From Lysobacter avium (lineage in GTDB: Bacteria > Pseudomonadota > Gammaproteobacteria > Xanthomonadales > Xanthomonadaceae), in NCBI RefSeq assembly GCF_015209745.1, contig NZ_CP063657.1, positions 1,612,001-1,676,000 of the forward strand: a stretch of 64,000 bases of DNA. The letters are read 5' to 3'. This document shows, in pieces, positions 1 to 8,700 of this stretch (position 1 is the stretch's first letter; the number at the start of each line of letters is the position of its first letter). A program made the position numbers and the translations under genes. Under the pieces are notes generated by a model. That model worked only from the letters and a program-made list of their open reading frames with translations, did no database searches and was not told the DNA's origin.

Positions 1-347
1 GGCACCTCAAGCCGGGCGCTCACAATCGCCAAAGCCTCCGGTTCGATGACGACGTCTCCGCTTGCCCACCAAGGCAGCAGGACGGCGTCGGCCGTCGCCA
101 GCACCTCCTTGGCCATCCGGTGAACGGCCGTTTCGAAGCCCCCGGGGCAGGAGGTCGCACGCGCGTGCTGGAAGTGCCGGACGCGGCGCCGTTCCGGGAA
201 GTCGCGGTTTCGCGCGATCAGCGGCTCCCCACACTCCGGGCAGGTGCACCTGCAGTCCAAGCCCAACGCGACGTCCGACACAAAGACAGGGCGCTCATCG
301 CGCATGCCGAAGGGGACCGTCAGTTTTCGAAGTGCGCGCTTGCTCAT
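1..347 (-). CDS. CoiA-like zinc-binding protein, N-terminal part (runs off window)
   Basis: An open frame on the minus strand starts at ATG 347 and is still open at the window edge, giving 115 visible residues. An in-frame TAG lies four codons upstream, so this is the first possible ATG, although no strong ribosome binding site is visible. Residues 32-39 carry a cysteine cluster (C32, C34, C36, C39), followed by CGEPLIARN, an arginine-rich RRRVRHFQH stretch, and CPGGFETAVHRMAKEVL. The order 'cysteine finger, HFxH, then GGFETAVHRMAK' matches the N-terminal region of competence protein CoiA-like proteins (family recognition from memory). CoiA acts with DNA uptake and recombination in Gram-positives; the many CoiA-like proteins on proteobacterial islands have unknown roles. 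It follows the TIR/DUF4209 genes on the same strand. The C-terminal half, where a nuclease domain would lie, is outside the window. Confidence 0.72.
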   Translation of the reverse strand, partial: MSKRALRKLTVPFGMRDERPVFVSDVALGLDCRCTCPECGEPLIARNRDFPERRRVRHFQHARATSCPGGFETAVHRMAKEVLATADAVLLPWWASGDVVIEPEALAIVSARLEV

Positions 348-493
348 GAGATCGTTCTAGGGCCAGGGGCGCCTGGGGTGAGGTCAGGTTAGGTTAACAA
401 CTCACAATCTCATACCAAGCGACAGCCTATGTGCGCCGGTCCCGCTGCGTCGTCGTTCCAGTTGAAGCTGCTCGGCGCTGAAGATGGTCAGTT

Positions 494-523
494 GATGTCC
501 GTTTTCGACCCAAAGCGGACGTC
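494..523. repeat. Short hairpin intergenic repeat, copy 1
   Basis: The 30-base element has 12-base arms of the form GATGTCCGTTTT and AAAGCGGACGTC around a CGACCC loop. The arms pair except for one T.G wobble and one mismatch. It lies in the 261-base gap between the DUF4209 gene and the CoiA-like gene. Similar TGTCCGCTTT/AAAGCGGACA hairpins are, from memory, widespread intergenic repeats in xanthomonads and rhizobia. The remainder of 348-608 shows no convincing gene. Confidence 0.5.
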
Positions 524-608
524 GGCAGTCAATTTGCCTACCTTGGCTGGCTGCCCAATAGCCCATGGTTCTACCGCAGGCAAGCTCTCTATTGACATGG
601 TGGATCAA

Positions 609-1775
609 CTAAACGTTGTCCTGATCGACAGGGGTTGAAGTCTCCCGGTTCGGAAGTGCGTCGCCCTCGCAGGTTGGTGTGGGGGCCAAGACAGCCGGAT
701 GCTCATGCCAGGGAAACAGAATCATCCGCCACAGCAGCCACCACAGCGACATAATCCCGGCGCTCTCCAGTGCATCGTCTGACATCAGGCCGTGGCAATA
801 TTTATTTCGTAAGTTGAAGCCAGCTTGCTCGACCAAATGCACTTGCAACTCAAAGACCAGGTCCTTACCGAAGAAGGCTTCCGTCTCAGGCGTAGATAGA
901 AGTTCACCGAGGGTCTTTTCGTGCTGCACGCCGTGCTCGTCCAGTGCCATGGTGTGTGCACCGACACGCTTGAGCTGATGGCGCACAAATGGCTCCATGG
1001 CCGGAATGAGATAGGCGGAAGCCCCCAGCCAATCGGCAGTGAAGCCAGCAAAAAGGCCACGAGCAAGGGTTTCTGACTGCGCATCGGGGGCAACAATGGA
1101 TGTCTCGACGATCTCCTTGATGCCTTGAAAGGACGGCTGGTAGGACGAGTAAAGCGCGTAGATCGATCGCGATACCATGATCCGTGCACGCAAGTTCAGA
1201 TCGAATTGCGTGGCATCGCGGATCATATGCTCGCGGACGGAAGTGGGATCGTTGGCATCGAACGCCGAGGTCCTAGCCACGATAGCTCCTTCAGCATTGG
1301 CATGGCTGGATGCGAAGAAGTGCGAGAGGGGGTGGTCTTCGGCGTTCTTGCGCACTCGCGCTTCAAGCTCTTCCATTCGCAGGGTCTTGTTGGCACGGTA
1401 AGCCATGCGAAGCAGTGATGCGAAGAAGCTCGGCGCTTCCAGCTGCTCGTCGATCCACTTGATCCATTCGGTGGCGTCGAACTCGTGTGAATGATGGCCG
1501 TAGTGGTCTAAGGATGCGCGTTCGTAATGCGTCAGCTGATCACGCAGGGCTTGAATACGCGTCGGATCCGCCTTCGCGCGGCGCAGGATCGAAATGGCTT
1601 CGGTCAGCTGCATGGGTGCCAAGATCGGCTGATGCTGCGCCGACAATTCTGCAGCCCGTGTCATGGCCTCGCCTTGAGCTAACAGCGCCGCATTTGCCTC
1701 GCTCCGTTGGCCCAACCGCCAGCGCAGACGGTGAGCCAGCTTGTGCCAGTCAGCCGCTTGCTGAGGCGAGCCCAC
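609..1775 (-). CDS. DUF4209-domain C-terminal fragment
   Basis: This frame gives 388 residues from GTG 1775, but the same frame is open back to codon 1883, directly after the TAA, so the true domain boundary lies upstream of the GTG. The C-terminal third carries the DUF4209 signature as I recall it: HGVQHEKTLGELL, then GKDLVFELQVHLVEQAG, NLRNKYCHGL, and a closing LWWLLWRMIL. The NLRNxxxHGL motif is reminiscent of HEPN-type RNxxxH sites (here R-N-K-Y-C-H), but nuclease activity is not established for this family. No good ribosome binding site precedes the GTG, which argues that this piece was originally made as part of the upstream reading frame. It ends at TAG 611-609. Confidence 0.55.
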   Translation of the reverse strand: MGSPQQAADWHKLAHRLRWRLGQRSEANAALLAQGEAMTRAAELSAQHQPILAPMQLTEAISILRRAKADPTRIQALRDQLTHYERASLDHYGHHSHEFDATEWIKWIDEQLEAPSFFASLLRMAYRANKTLRMEELEARVRKNAEDHPLSHFFASSHANAEGAIVARTSAFDANDPTSVREHMIRDATQFDLNLRARIMVSRSIYALYSSYQPSFQGIKEIVETSIVAPDAQSETLARGLFAGFTADWLGASAYLIPAMEPFVRHQLKRVGAHTMALDEHGVQHEKTLGELLSTPETEAFFGKDLVFELQVHLVEQAGFNLRNKYCHGLMSDDALESAGIMSLWWLLWRMILFPWHEHPAVLAPTPTCEGDALPNRETSTPVDQDNV

Positions 1776-1883
1776 ATCAAGCTCGGCCGCCTTGGCTTCG
1801 ATCTGCGGAACAATGATCTCGCACGCTTCCCTTGAGCGATCCAGTGCTTCATCGCATAAGCGAAAGACTAGCCCCGGCCAGTT

Positions 1884-2474
1884 TTACTTAATCGCGTGTG
1901 GAACCTCTTTGAGAATGGCGCACCAATATCGTCCCCACAGAGTCTCGTCCCGCTTGGCGTAGACGCGCAACAGCACCAGCCCGCGCCGGATCTCGTCTAG
2001 CCCATCGATTGCCCAATCCGAGCCGAAGACGGTAATGGCATAGTCCAGATACGCGTTTGCTGCCAGCTGGCCCAGTCGCCAGTCTGGCGGGATGCTGCCC
2101 TCAGCAGAAACAGCCAAGTCCGCGAACCGCGCTCGCACCCAAGGGTGAGGCGCGTCAGCTGCGGCACGCGCCAATAAGGCAATATCGTGTTCTCCCAGGT
2201 CCTCCATGGACATACTTCGCCGGCCTTCCATTTGCATAACGGGCCCGAAAGAAGCATGCGATGCGTGTCGCATGTGCATGGAGATGGCACCGCCAAGCAC
2301 TTGCAGAGCTTGCGATTGGGCCAGTTGCCCAGATTCCTCAAGCTCACGTGCTCGCCCCCAGAACCTAGAGGCAAGCGCCCACTGAAAATGCCGATCCTCA
2401 GGTGTTCCCGCCAGCGCCACCCAGTTGATGGCGGCGTAGGTTTCTTCGTCGATAGGTTGTTGAAGGTGGGGCAA
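1884..2474 (-). CDS. DUF7380-like N-terminal fragment of the DUF4209 protein
   Basis: 196 residues start at TTG 2474, chosen because a strong ribosome binding site (GGAGGA, 7 nt spacing) precedes it and an in-frame TAG lies two codons upstream. The helical, Ala/Arg-rich sequence includes FWGRARELEESG, then RRSMSMEDLGEHDIALL and ARFADLAV, which match what I recall of DUF7380, the N-terminal partner of DUF4209. The start lies 18 nt after the stop of the TIR gene, so the two are co-transcribed. The frame ends at a TAA that looks like a nonsense mutation rather than the natural end. Function is unknown; DUF4209 proteins occur on islands. Confidence 0.6.
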   Translation of the reverse strand: MPHLQQPIDEETYAAINWVALAGTPEDRHFQWALASRFWGRARELEESGQLAQSQALQVLGGAISMHMRHASHASFGPVMQMEGRRSMSMEDLGEHDIALLARAAADAPHPWVRARFADLAVSAEGSIPPDWRLGQLAANAYLDYAITVFGSDWAIDGLDEIRRGLVLLRVYAKRDETLWGRYWCAILKEVPHAIK

Positions 2475-2492
2475 GTGCTATTCCTCCATGGC

Positions 2493-3461
2493 TTACCGCT
2501 GCAGGTGGCCGACAAGCAGTTCCCAGAAATACTCAGACGCTCCCTGGGGTGAGAGTTTCTGCTCGCGATCCGCCCCGAAGTTCGCCATGCCAAAGCTCCG
2601 CAGGAAGACCGACTGGTCGTCGGCACACACTGTCAGTGTTTCGTTGGTTGTGTTGCTGCCAGTCGCTTCGCCTTGCACATAGTTAATGCCATCCCCAAAG
2701 GAGCCCCCTCCAGTGAAGTAGGTGGCCCGTGCCACGTCCTTTCCATCGTGATAGATCGTGGCAAATAAGCGATTGGCATCGATCCGCTTGAACACGCCCT
2801 CATACCCTGAATTACGATCGGTCAGCTCAGCTAGCGAATTCTCGATGAATTTGGCGATGTATTCGAAGGCCTCATCCTTGAATCGGTCCTTGTCGCGCTG
2901 TGTGAAGTTCTTGGCCAATCGCAGGTTGCTGGATCTAGGACCGGCGGCGGCCGGTGCAGGCGTGGCCGGGGTCGCTAGCTCGGCCGTGCTACCGGCTGAG
3001 GCAGTGTCCCGTGGAGCTTGCCAACGCTCCGCTGCCTGCCGGACGGCCTTGGCGACCTGAAGCATGGCCTCGTCAATATCAGGCCATTGCTTGATCGCCT
3101 TGCCGTCGCGGGGCACGGCCTGGAGCTTGCCAAAGGGAGTGGAGTGCCAGTCGCATACCCGCAGGATGACCGGGATTACAGTGGCCTCGCCGGCCTCGTG
3201 TCTTTCGATTGCTCGCTGCATCTCGATCTCATAGCAATAGTCGGACGCAATGAAATCGGGGCTAACCAGCAGTAGGATGATCCGGTCACGGTTGATATGG
3301 TCATCAATAGCTTGCGCGAACTCCTCGCCTGGCCTGATATGGCGATCGTGCCATGTCTCGATAACTCTTTGCCGCTTGAGCGTGGAAAGCTGCTTTTCGA
3401 TCTGATCGCGCATGGCTTCGTCGGCGTGCGAATAAGAGAAGAAGACGCTGGGAGCTGTCAT
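2493..3461 (-). CDS. TIR-domain protein with C-terminal domain of unknown function
   Basis: The start at ATG 3461 (322 residues) is preferred over ATG 3503 (336 residues) because the TIR fold begins at once with SVFFSYSHADEA and because an AAGGA lies upstream; the extra 14 residues look non-conserved. Residues 1-145 form a TIR_2-type domain. The motif SPDFIASDYCYEIE places the likely catalytic NADase glutamate at E78 (start at 3461), in the usual 'S..F..S.yC..E' context. After a Pro/Ala-rich linker (about residues 155-180) comes a predicted alpha/beta domain of about 140 residues that I do not recognise (KDEAFEYIAKFIENS, YFTGGG, FGMANFG). Bacterial TIR proteins often deplete NAD+ in abortive-infection defence. 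The DUF7380-DUF4209 gene follows after 18 nt, so the pair is probably one transcript. Confidence 0.85.
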   Translation of the reverse strand: MTAPSVFFSYSHADEAMRDQIEKQLSTLKRQRVIETWHDRHIRPGEEFAQAIDDHINRDRIILLLVSPDFIASDYCYEIEMQRAIERHEAGEATVIPVILRVCDWHSTPFGKLQAVPRDGKAIKQWPDIDEAMLQVAKAVRQAAERWQAPRDTASAGSTAELATPATPAPAAAGPRSSNLRLAKNFTQRDKDRFKDEAFEYIAKFIENSLAELTDRNSGYEGVFKRIDANRLFATIYHDGKDVARATYFTGGGSFGDGINYVQGEATGSNTTNETLTVCADDQSVFLRSFGMANFGADREQKLSPQGASEYFWELLVGHLQR

Positions 3462-3773
3462 GTTCCTGATGGGTCCTTTGGAAGACTGTTTGACGAACTT
3501 CATGTTCGGTGATCGATCTCGACGATCTACCTAAATCGGCTCAATAGTCGCGGCTGGCAATCCTCTACTTGCTAACTTACCGACCTTGGGCTCTCCTAAT
3601 GCAATGTAGGTGGCACCCAGTCAGCGAGTCGAAATTTTGCGGGTGGACCAGCGCCCCACCACAAAATGCGGATTTGCATGCGCTTTTCTTATGTCTGCTT
3701 ATGGCCGGAAGCGGTCAGTTCGCTGATCGCTCAGTTTGCCCTCCACGGGACCCGACTGGCTCAGACCACATCG
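3462..3773. other. Gene-free, AT-richer spacer upstream of the TIR gene
   Basis: No credible coding sequence is seen between the TIR gene start and the sbcC remnant. The stretch is less GC-rich than the core genome and should hold the promoter of the TIR operon on the minus strand. The only structure seen is the hairpin repeat at 3691-3717. Confidence 0.5.
3691..3717. repeat. Short hairpin intergenic repeat, copy 2
   Basis: An imperfect hairpin of the form ATGTCTGCTT, ATGGCCGG loop, AAGCGGTCA. Its arms resemble those of the hairpin at 494-523 (TGTCCG...CGGAC with T/C changes), while the loop differs. Together the two copies bracket the TIR/DUF4209 genes. Assignment to one repeat family is inference from the arm sequence. 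Confidence 0.35.
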
Positions 3774-3970
3774 GCGTCAGGCCACACCGTCACGCTATGC
3801 CCCCTCCCCCGCGTCTTCCGCACCTGCATCGGCACCGGTTTCCGCTCTTTCACTGCGCACGCCGATCAGCTTGCCCTGGGCAATGAGGCTGTCGAGCGCG
3901 ACCTTGAGCGAATCCGGGTCAAGGCTGCCGAAGCCCTAGTCGAGTAAGAAGCGTCCATGCGGGTCTTGTG
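3774..3970 (-). pseudogene. Decayed second copy of the sbcC 3' end
   Basis: About 195 bases align with the last part of the intact sbcC (5714-5925) on the same strand. Conserved pieces, read across frameshifts, are HKTRMD, GFGSLDPDSL, ALDSLIAQGKLIGV and QVRKTRGRGHS, ending at an aligned TGA. The copy has lost about 15 and about 9 bases relative to the intact gene and carries frame breaks around its Walker B region (intact: FFLDEGFGSLD). Homology stops abruptly at 3970, two bases before the stop codon of the MFS gene. Divergence is clearly greater than expected for a recent duplication, so this may be the end of an sbcC allele imported from a relative. Confidence 0.8.
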
Positions 3971-5713: not shown

Positions 5714-8700
5714 TCAGGGGCATACCACCGCGCTATGCCCCATCCCGCGCGTCTTGCGCACCTGGATCTGCACCGGGATGCGCTCTTTCACCGCATCCAC
5801 ATGGCTGATCACGCCGATGAGCTTGCCCTGGGCATTGAGGCTGTCGAGCGCGTCCAAGGCGACGTCGAGTGAGTCCGGGTCCAGGCTGCCGAAGCCTTCG
5901 TCGAGGAAGAACGAGTCGATCCGGGTCTTGTGGCTGACCAGATCCGACAGGCCCAGTGCCAGCGCGAGGCTGACCAGGAAACTTTCGCCGCCGGACAGGG
6001 TGCGGGTGTCGCGCCGGGCGTCGGCCTGCCAGGTGTCGAGCACGCTCAGGGCCAAGCCTTTGCCGTCGCGGGCCAGCAGGTAGCGGCCGCCGTCGAGCCG
6101 CTGCAGGTGCTGGTTGGCCAGACGCACCAGCTGGTCCAGGGTCAGCCCCTGGGCGAAGGTGCGGAACCTGTCGCCCTGCGCCGAGCCGATCAGGCCATTG
6201 AGGTGCTGCCATTCCTCCAGCCGGTCGCCGGCCTCGGCGATCTGCGTGTGCAGCGCCTGCAGGCCGCTGCGCTGGGCCTGATCCAGCGCGAGCTGGGTAC
6301 GGATCTGCGTGGCCTGATCGCGCGCCTGCTCCACGGCGGCTTCGCTGGTCTGTGCGTCCGCAATGAGTTGCGCCAGATCCGCGTCGCTGCGGGGCGTGGC
6401 CTGCAGTTCGTCGCATCGCTCACGCAGTTGCGTGGCACGGCTGCGGATATCGGCGAGTGTCTGGGTCAGCGCGTCCTGCTCGGACTGCAACTGCTCGCGT
6501 TCCTCGGGCGGCAGCCGCGCGGCCAACAGCGCGTCGTGGTTGGCGAAGCCGTGCTGCTGGAGCGCCGATTCGAGCTGGGTTGTGGTGTGGGCGAGATCCT
6601 GCGAACGGCTTTCCAACAACATCTCAGCCCCGTGCAGGGCGGAGGCGGCGTGATGCACCTGCTGCTGCACCTGCTCCAGTTCCGCGACGGCGCGGCGTAG
6701 TGCGGCGGCGGGCTCGGCTGCCGGTGCGAGCGCCTCACCGGGTGTTCCGGCATGGGGGCTCTTCTCCCAGCGCTGCTGCCAATGCTCGCCCTGCTCGCCC
6801 GCCTGCTTTGCTTTGCTGCGGTGCTCGACCAGCGCGTGTTGCAGGCGCTGCAGTTCGGCATCGCGTTGGCGCCATTGCGACCACTCGTGCTCGCGCTCGC
6901 TCAGCCATGCTTCCGCATCGGCGGGCAGCGCGCGGTCCGGCAGGTCGGCGGACAGCTGCTGGCGCAGGCGCTCGGCTTCGCTGACGGCGGCATCGTGGCG
7001 CTCACGCTGCTCCTGCTCACGGCCCGCGGCCATCGTCAGCGATTCGCGCAGGCCCTCAAGCCTGGTGTCGTGGTGCGCCAACGCCAGTTGCTGTTCGTCG
7101 CGTTGCTTGTTCGCGACCTGCACGGCGGCATGCAATTGCTCCAGCTTGGCGACGTGCTCGCTGGCCTGTTTGCCCTGCATGCCGACGGCGGTGAGTTCGA
7201 CGGCCAACGCCGACTGCTCGTCGCCGTCGGCAAGGGTGAGCCGCAGCGCGGCGCAGCGTGACGCCCAGTTGTCGGCGAGCGTGGCGCTTTGCGCGTCCAA
7301 TGCCTGCAGATGGTGATCGGTACGGGTCAGGTCGGCTTGCCTGGACGCATGCTGGACCTCACTGCGCCGGTGACGCTCGCTGGCCTGCTGGAGCTGCAAC
7401 TCGGCCTCGCTGGCATCGGCCTGCGACTGGCTGGGGTCGAGCTGCCGGTACTCGTCGATGGCCGGGTGCTCGGTGGCGCCGCACAGCGGGCACGCCTGCC
7501 CGTCTTCCAGGGCCGCGCGGTGGCCGGCCAGGTCCATGATCTGGCGCTCCAGCGCGACGATGCGCTGGCGATCCTGCAGGGTGGTCTTGGCGCCGTCCAG
7601 TTCCGACTGCGCCTTTGCCAGTTGCTCGGCGTCGCTGACGAGCATGGCCTTCAACGCTTCCAATCGCGCCTGTTCGTCACTGATCTGCGTGCGCAGCGTT
7701 TGCCGCTGTTCGACCAGCGGCGACAGGTCGCGCAAGGCGGCGTATCGCTCGCGCAGGCCGTCGCGCGCCGCGCGCAGTGCTTCCACGCTGGTGCCGGCGC
7801 TGGCGGTCGCGAACTGCACGGTGTCCGCGTCGACCTGCGCGCTGGCCTCAGCCAGGGCCGTCGCCAGCCCTGCCCGCTCCTCTTCGCCGGACCTGAGCAA
7901 CGCTTGGGATTGCTCGTGCCTGGCGGACGCGTCGGCGAGCGCTTGCCTGGCCTGCGCTTCCTGTTGGGTGGCGGTCTGCAGTTGGGCGAATCCGGCGCGC
8001 CATCCCGGCAGTTTCTCGCCGAGTTGCGCATGCGCGCTCAAACCCGTCTGGGTGGACTGCAATTGGTCAAAGCGCTGCTGGTCGGTCTGCAGCGCCAGCG
8101 CGCTGGCCTGCGCGCACTGTCGGGCCAGTTGCAGGCATTGCCACAGGCCGTTGCGCTCCAACCCCAGCTGCTCGGCGTGCTGTTGCTGCGCCTGCTCACG
8201 GTTGGTCTTTGCGTCGGCAACGCCCTGGGTCGCCTTCTGCCACTGGCTGTAGGGCGGCCACGCCGCCTCCGCAGGTTGGGACCGTTGCAGGCGCTCACGC
8301 GCCGGGGCGGCGGCGTTCAGTGCGTCCTGCGCGGCGCGCTCCTGATCGTCAACGGCGCGCAGCTGCGCCTGCACCTTGTCCAATTCCTGCCGCCACGCCA
8401 GCGCGTCGCGGCTGCGCTGCCGCGCGACCACCAGACGCTCCACGTCTTCGGTCACGGCTTGCAGCTGTTCCTGCATTGCGGCGAGCGCGTCCTCTGACAG
8501 CAGTTGCACGCCGCCGGCCGTCGCCTGCAGCTGGTCGACCTCGCGCTTGATCCGGTCGGTCTGCGCGTACACCCGCTGCGAGATGTCGCTGTAGATATCG
8601 GTGCCGGTCAGCTGCTCCAGCAGCTCGGCGCGCTCGTTGTCCTTGCTGTGCAGGAAGCTCGCGAACTCGCCCTGCGCGAGCAGGACCGAGCGCGTGAAGC

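What the first reader, a model, noticed from the sequence alone, without database searches (positions are those of the whole stretch)
609..3461. Two-gene TIR plus DUF7380-DUF4209 cassette: candidate uncharacterised defence system
A TIR-domain protein with a preserved catalytic-type glutamate (E78) and an unrecognised C-terminal domain is followed after 18 nt by a DUF7380-DUF4209 gene with its own strong ribosome binding site. The DUF4209 part contains a R-N-K-Y-C-H stretch that resembles an HEPN RNxxxH site. TIR NAD+ depletion together with a partner sensor or RNase would fit an abortive-infection logic. The pairing, island position and AT-richer composition are seen; the defence role is inference.
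Basis: partly seen in the sequence, partly recalled or inferred. Interest (0 to 1): 0.82.

Follow-up and report, generated by a model that had tools for sequence, protein, structure and literature searches.

The report
Chance neighbours: TIR and HEPN genes
Two genes that resemble separate bacterial anti-phage genes sit side by side on a small inserted island, but in the relatives examined they almost never travel together and the second one is broken here, so this is probably an island neighbourhood rather than a new two-part defence system.

Summary
The anatomy is real: a TIR gene (3461-2493, minus strand, 322 aa), then after 18 nt a DUF7380-DUF4209 gene (2474-609) with its own ribosome site. 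Two corrections. The catalytic-type glutamate is E80, not E78. The second gene has an in-frame TAA at codon 197, so it is broken, though otherwise little decayed. DUF4209 is a published HEPN family; the model shows a helical solenoid plus a mostly helical part with the conserved R-x4-H. PADLOC profiles match both genes: 'ThsB' and candidate PDC-S39. The pair lies on a ~11.4 kb island absent from two same-genus genomes. Elsewhere the TIR is followed by an unnamed ~157-aa gene (8 of 32) or preceded by a type VI retron-like RT (3 of 32). One metagenomic contig may carry the same pair. Most likely: two independent defence-type genes, the second recently inactivated. The best lead is a TIR effector that changes partners.

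The parts
2493..3461 (-). TIR gene, 322 aa plus stop; TIR_2 domain residues 6-116, low-confidence linker about 151-183, alpha/beta C-terminal domain about 188-321 (PF27176 in relatives)
   Evidence: (PADLOC PDLC00420 ThsB, 442 bits, residues 4-322)
3222..3224 (-). codon for E80, the invariant catalytic-type glutamate (the E78 codon is 3230-3228)
   Evidence: E in 50 of 50 sequences; aligned with the Glu of Cat1 and of AbTir
2475..2492 (-). 18-nt gap with Shine-Dalgarno-like GGAGGA before the TTG start
609..2474 (-). DUF7380-DUF4209 gene, 621 codons with one in-frame TAA; PADLOC candidate PDC-S39
1884..1886 (-). in-frame TAA at codon 197 that breaks the gene; intact relatives exist
792..809 (-). 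R-N-K-Y-C-H (codons 556-561), HEPN R-x4-H motif
1..3857 (.). right part of an approximately 11.4 kb island (about G000:C1 1604479-1615857) absent from two same-genus genomes

Best explanation
Two separate defence-type genes came to lie next to each other on a variable chromosomal island. The first encodes a TIR-domain protein whose conserved glutamate and fold fit an NAD+-consuming (or NAD+-signal-making) effector, with an alpha/beta C-terminal domain that probably oligomerises or senses the trigger (inference). The second belongs to PDC-S39: an N-terminal helical solenoid, the likely sensor (inference), joined to a HEPN-type RNase domain that would cut RNA when triggered (inference from the R-x4-H motif). 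In this genome the second gene is cut at codon 197, so only the TIR protein is likely to be made whole. The 18-nt spacing makes joint transcription likely (inference). A functional partnership is not indicated by the comparative data.
For: Domains and motifs. Island absent from two same-genus genomes and replaced there by other genes, in one of them a PADLOC PDC-S19 candidate. Other defence candidates on the same island (PDC-S42, PDC-S64). Partners not shared: family 12 DUF, 13 TIR, 2 both of 395; phylum 6 DUF, 8 TIR, 1 both of 398; genus 1 of 10 with the TIR; 1 of 38 DUF stretches with a TIR within 2 kb and 1 of 32 TIR stretches with the DUF gene. The DUF gene lies directly beside a Phage_integrase-family gene in L043, L044 and L046 and beside or near annotated recombinases in L082, L083, L085, L113 and L115. 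Stop codon.
Against: TIR relative P0006 (82%) and DUF relative P0125 (71%) are each known from one contig, and both contigs are 5346 bases long, so a second, diverged copy of the pair probably exists. In the family both genes occur in 2 genomes against 0.39 expected (P = 0.055; 0.027 if only the 9 genomes are counted that match over the whole TIR protein, one of them in two pieces, genomes). G152, which lacks this TIR, has a different TIR gene 5.1 kb from its DUF gene. No enzymatic activity was tested.
Confidence: 0.7

Rival explanations
1. A real but rare two-gene system of this lineage: the TIR protein and the solenoid-HEPN protein act together, for example the HEPN protein senses infection and one effector licenses the other.
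For: 18-nt spacing with its own ribosome site; probable second pair on a 5346-base metagenomic contig, at 82% and 71% identity; both genes in G275, although 13 kb apart and with the DUF gene in pieces.
Against: No other adjacent pair among 38 DUF stretches and 32 TIR stretches; same-genus G152 has an intact DUF gene without this TIR; the DUF gene is broken here.
Confidence: 0.13
2. The TIR is a portable effector that joins different trigger modules; here it landed in front of PDC-S39 and may use it, or may have lost its usual partner.
For: Same TIR family followed by an approximately 157-aa gene in 8 of 32 stretches and preceded by a related RT in 3 of 32 (positions, counts); the RT matches PADLOC RT_VI in the two loci scanned, L078 and L102, and the gene before it matches HTH_VI; the same annotated order is in L079.
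Against: 20 of 32 stretches have none of the three partners. The search profiles were built from five of the eight 157-aa genes and from two of the three RTs, so those were found by construction, and other kinds of RT were not sought. No test of function.
Confidence: 0.3
3. Thoeris: the TIR is a ThsB that makes a signal for a ThsA elsewhere in the genome.
For: PADLOC PDLC00420 ThsB, 442 bits over the full length.
Against: No STALD-domain (one ThsA type) match at E<=1 in the whole genome; none of the 14 control genomes reached the cut-off, so the search had no positive control. Pfam ThsB_TIR 16.6 bits, below the cut-off of 21.2.
Confidence: 0.07

Closest known systems
PADLOC PDLC00420 (labelled ThsB, Thoeris)
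   Same: Full-length profile match to the window TIR protein, 442 bits
   Different: No STALD-type ThsA match in the genome; the Pfam ThsB_TIR model is below its cut-off
PADLOC PDC-S39 (phage defence candidate)
   Same: Both pieces match in series; intact relatives P0123, L045 and L046 match over nearly the whole profile
   Different: Broken here. One paper lists PDC-S39 in P. aeruginosa PAO1 and describes PDC systems as 'not confirmed' (PMC11878078, two passages read)
C6orf70/DUF4209 family of the HEPN superfamily (PMC3710099, passages read)
   Same: DUF4209 domain, R-x4-H; the table row says active site 'Yes', fused to TPR, occurs in R-M related operons
   Different: The passages that I read mention no TIR neighbour for this family
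Type VI retron genes RT_VI and HTH_VI (PADLOC)
   Same: Upstream of a relative of this TIR on plasmids: profile matches in L078 and L102, same annotated order in L079
   Different: No related RT in the 14 kb at the window TIR or the 14 kb left of the window
Cat1 and AbTir (solved TIR proteins)
   Same: TIR fold and aligned glutamate
   Different: The matches cover the TIR part only; the AbTir tryptophan aligned with residue 75 is a tyrosine here

Membership tests
TIR NADase-type domain | TIR fold | tested here: met
TIR NADase-type domain | Catalytic glutamate | tested here: met
   E80, 50 of 50 sequences, aligned with the AbTir and Cat1 Glu; that this Glu is catalytic in those proteins is recalled
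TIR NADase-type domain | NAD+ cleavage | not testable with these tools
   needs enzyme assay
Thoeris | ThsB-type TIR | tested here: inconclusive
   PADLOC yes, Pfam ThsB_TIR below cut-off
Thoeris | ThsA effector with STALD domain in the genome | tested here: not met
   0 matches in G000 at E<=1, without a positive control; other ThsA types not tested
HEPN (C6orf70/DUF4209) | DUF4209 domain with R-x4-H | tested here: met
HEPN (C6orf70/DUF4209) | HEPN fold | tested here: inconclusive
   C-terminal part of the model is mostly helical; the listed matches of the second look lie mainly in the N-terminal solenoid, residues 16-327, and Foldseek gave nothing at E<=0.001
HEPN (C6orf70/DUF4209) | RNase activity | not testable with these tools
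   needs assay
PDC-S39 | Full-length profile match | tested here: met
   (two pieces in series), for intact relatives
PDC-S39 | Intact reading frame | tested here: not met
   in-frame TAA at codon 197
Type VI retron | RT_VI and HTH_VI genes next to the TIR | tested here: not met
   no hit of an RT profile made from L078 and L102 in L040 or L041; HTH not sought there
Conserved TIR+DUF4209 system | Recurrent adjacency across genomes | tested here: not met
   1 of 38 DUF stretches, 1 of 32 TIR stretches, both this window; one further pair is probable in a metagenome

The most novel reading that the evidence does not exclude
TIR proteins with the PF27176-type C-terminal domain are a portable effector that several unrelated trigger modules have recruited: a type VI retron HTH-RT pair, an unnamed 157-aa partner, and in this lineage a solenoid-HEPN protein. 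The window would then show a third kind of trigger, an RNase-sensor protein, wired to a TIR.
Probability: 0.25. Interest if true: 0.6.

Novelty: new member of a known kind. Interest (0 to 1): 0.3.

Why it matters
As given, the finding would have named a new two-gene defence system; the comparison says that it should not be named from this locus. What remains useful is that one TIR family appears with different neighbours, including type VI retron genes. That is a concrete test of whether TIR effectors are swapped between trigger modules. DUF4209 genes deserve testing as single-gene defence candidates.

Tried and rejected

Notes on the counts. The 38 DUF stretches are 13 from the family sample, 5 from the phylum sample, 6 from the class sample, 3 from genome contigs, 1 from viral contigs and 10 plasmids. 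They include two copies of what looks like the same X. euvesicatoria locus (L049, L082), two stretches of one genome (L053, L064), partial DUF matches (for example L064, L074, L109), and stretches cut by a contig or record end (L010 and L110 lack the upstream side; L104 and L109 hold little downstream). L004-L006 were left out as copies of L042, L043 and L049. Of 24 plasmid records with a DUF relative 10 were opened; of 32 with a TIR relative 14 were opened. Of the 13 family genomes with a TIR match 12 were fetched (not G014, on a 3982-base contig). L061-L063 match only the TIR part, so 29 of the 32 have the whole architecture. Several plasmid stretches hold only 1-6 kb per side. L082 has an annotated TIR-domain gene some 4 kb upstream that my profiles did not detect, so the TIR count can miss divergent TIRs. 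The two-genome co-occurrence in the family is slightly above chance and is given under evidence against.

Full report
What is there. On the minus strand, a 322-aa TIR protein (3461-2493) is followed after 18 nt by a TTG-started ORF at 2474 with GGAGGA seven bases before it. A longer start at 3503 is possible, but 12 of 14 aligned relatives begin at or within two residues of the 3461 start. The second gene would span 621 codons to 609, but codon 197 is TAA in frame. Relatives with an intact frame exist, the closest over the full length at 89% identity (P0123).

Domains. The TIR part matches TIR_2 at 67.2 bits and the whole protein matches PADLOC PDLC00420 'ThsB' at 442 bits. The 120 listed relatives, of 6497 found, carry PF27176 besides the TIR domain. 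The second gene matches DUF7380 and DUF4209 over their cut-offs and PADLOC's PDC-S39. DUF4209 was placed in the HEPN superfamily in 2013, overlapping the C6orf70 family, with a conserved active site, TPR fusions and R-M related operons (PMC3710099, passages read).

Catalytic residues. In 50 aligned sequences position 78 is E in 16, D in 27, N in 5, A in 1 and Q in 1; position 80 is E in 50. Profile alignments to solved TIR proteins put E80 on the glutamate of Cat1 and of AbTir. So the glutamate is preserved, two residues further on. R556 and H561 of the second protein are present in 18 of 18 sequences and in 36 of 37 of a larger set, the last having a gap there.

Decay. Apart from the stop, the second gene shows little sign of decay: 2 of 86 strongly conserved columns differ, against 1 of 86 in its intact relative P0123; for the TIR, 3 of 124 against 1 of 124 in P0003. 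The loss looks recent, or could be a sequencing error; no reads are available.

Island. Two same-genus genomes (G152, G185) match the window's genome on both sides, but the window's genome has about 11.4 kb between the matches, from 7,522 bases left of the window to about 3,800-3,860 in it. In the sisters the gap holds 2.5-2.6 kb that does not match between them, in G152 with a PDC-S19 candidate. On the window island PADLOC also finds PDC-S42 and PDC-S64, and Pfam finds a 209-aa Phage_integrase ORF. This is a variable site with defence-type cargo.

Does the pair recur? In 395 genomes of the family the DUF gene occurs in 12 and the TIR in 13, both in 2: here, adjacent, and in G275, about 13 kb apart with the DUF gene in pieces. 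Expected by chance: 0.39; P = 0.055, or 0.027 with only the 9 genomes that match over the whole TIR protein, one of them in two pieces. In 398 genomes of the phylum: 8 TIR, 6 DUF, both only here. In the genus 1 of 10 has the TIR, while G152 has an intact DUF gene without it, though with a different TIR gene 5.1 kb away. In 358 genomes of the class 7 have the DUF gene, this one included. Over the stretches opened, a TIR lies within 2 kb of the DUF gene in 1 of 38, and DUF4209 lies in the stretch in 1 of 32 TIR stretches; both are this window. Against this, P0006 and P0125, each known from one contig, share the contig length of 5346 bases, so one more pair is likely.

What the genes do elsewhere. 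Among 32 TIR stretches, 8 have a downstream gene of about 157 aa; three members tested have no Pfam match and the one tested has no PADLOC match. Three plasmid loci have a related RT gene directly upstream; in the two scanned (L078, L102) RT and HTH match PADLOC's RT_VI and HTH_VI, and the third (L079) has the same annotated order. Five of the eight 157-aa genes and two of the three RTs were used to build the search profiles. Twenty stretches show none of the three partners. The DUF gene is directly next to a Phage_integrase-family gene in L043, L044 and L046, has annotated recombinases or integrases beside it in L083 and L115, and has one within a few kb in L082, L085 and L113. It overlaps a DNA methyltransferase gene in L110.

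Conclusion. Two defence-type genes, each already matched by a PADLOC profile, lie together on a variable island. Joint transcription is likely from the spacing. A shared function is possible but not supported by comparison, and in this genome the second gene is broken. The part worth pursuing is the TIR family's change of neighbours, above all the type VI retron genes.

Noticed in passing
L078:2783-4960, L079:2783-4960, L102:1715-3951: HTH-RT genes directly upstream of a relative of the window TIR on three alphaproteobacterial plasmids; type VI retron profile matches in L078 and L102.
   Followed up: partly
L047:8791-9261, L054:9454-9927, L057:9533-10003, L058, L060, L065, L076, L096: Unnamed protein of about 157 aa directly downstream of the TIR gene in 8 of 32 stretches; no Pfam match in the three tested, no PADLOC match in the one tested.
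   Followed up: partly
window 3694-3947: Stretch beyond the MFS gene that resembles the end of the SbcC gene at about 5714-5934 (cross-matches); looks like a leftover copy.
   Followed up: no
window 1-347 continuing into L040:13328-14000: ORF of about 339 aa whose C-terminal part matches Phage_DNA_bind (helix-destabilising protein) at 29 bits, cut-off 25; the N-terminal part was not identified.
   Followed up: no
L040:6795-8449 (left of the window, same island): Two adjacent genes matching PADLOC candidates PDC-S42 and PDC-S64; the second is weakly DUF3644-like.
   Followed up: no
L092:15528-18133 and L093:15434-17969: The same chromosomal site in two sister genomes holds different cargo (a PDC-S19 gene; an oxidoreductase-like ORF, judged by eye), so it looks like an insertion hotspot.
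   Followed up: partly
L040:9516-11213 and L042:12918-14639: Related proteins (SEC-C motif in the L040 one) lie near the DUF4209 gene both here and in G309, whose contig length equals that of Pseudoxanthomonas sp. PXM02.
   Followed up: no
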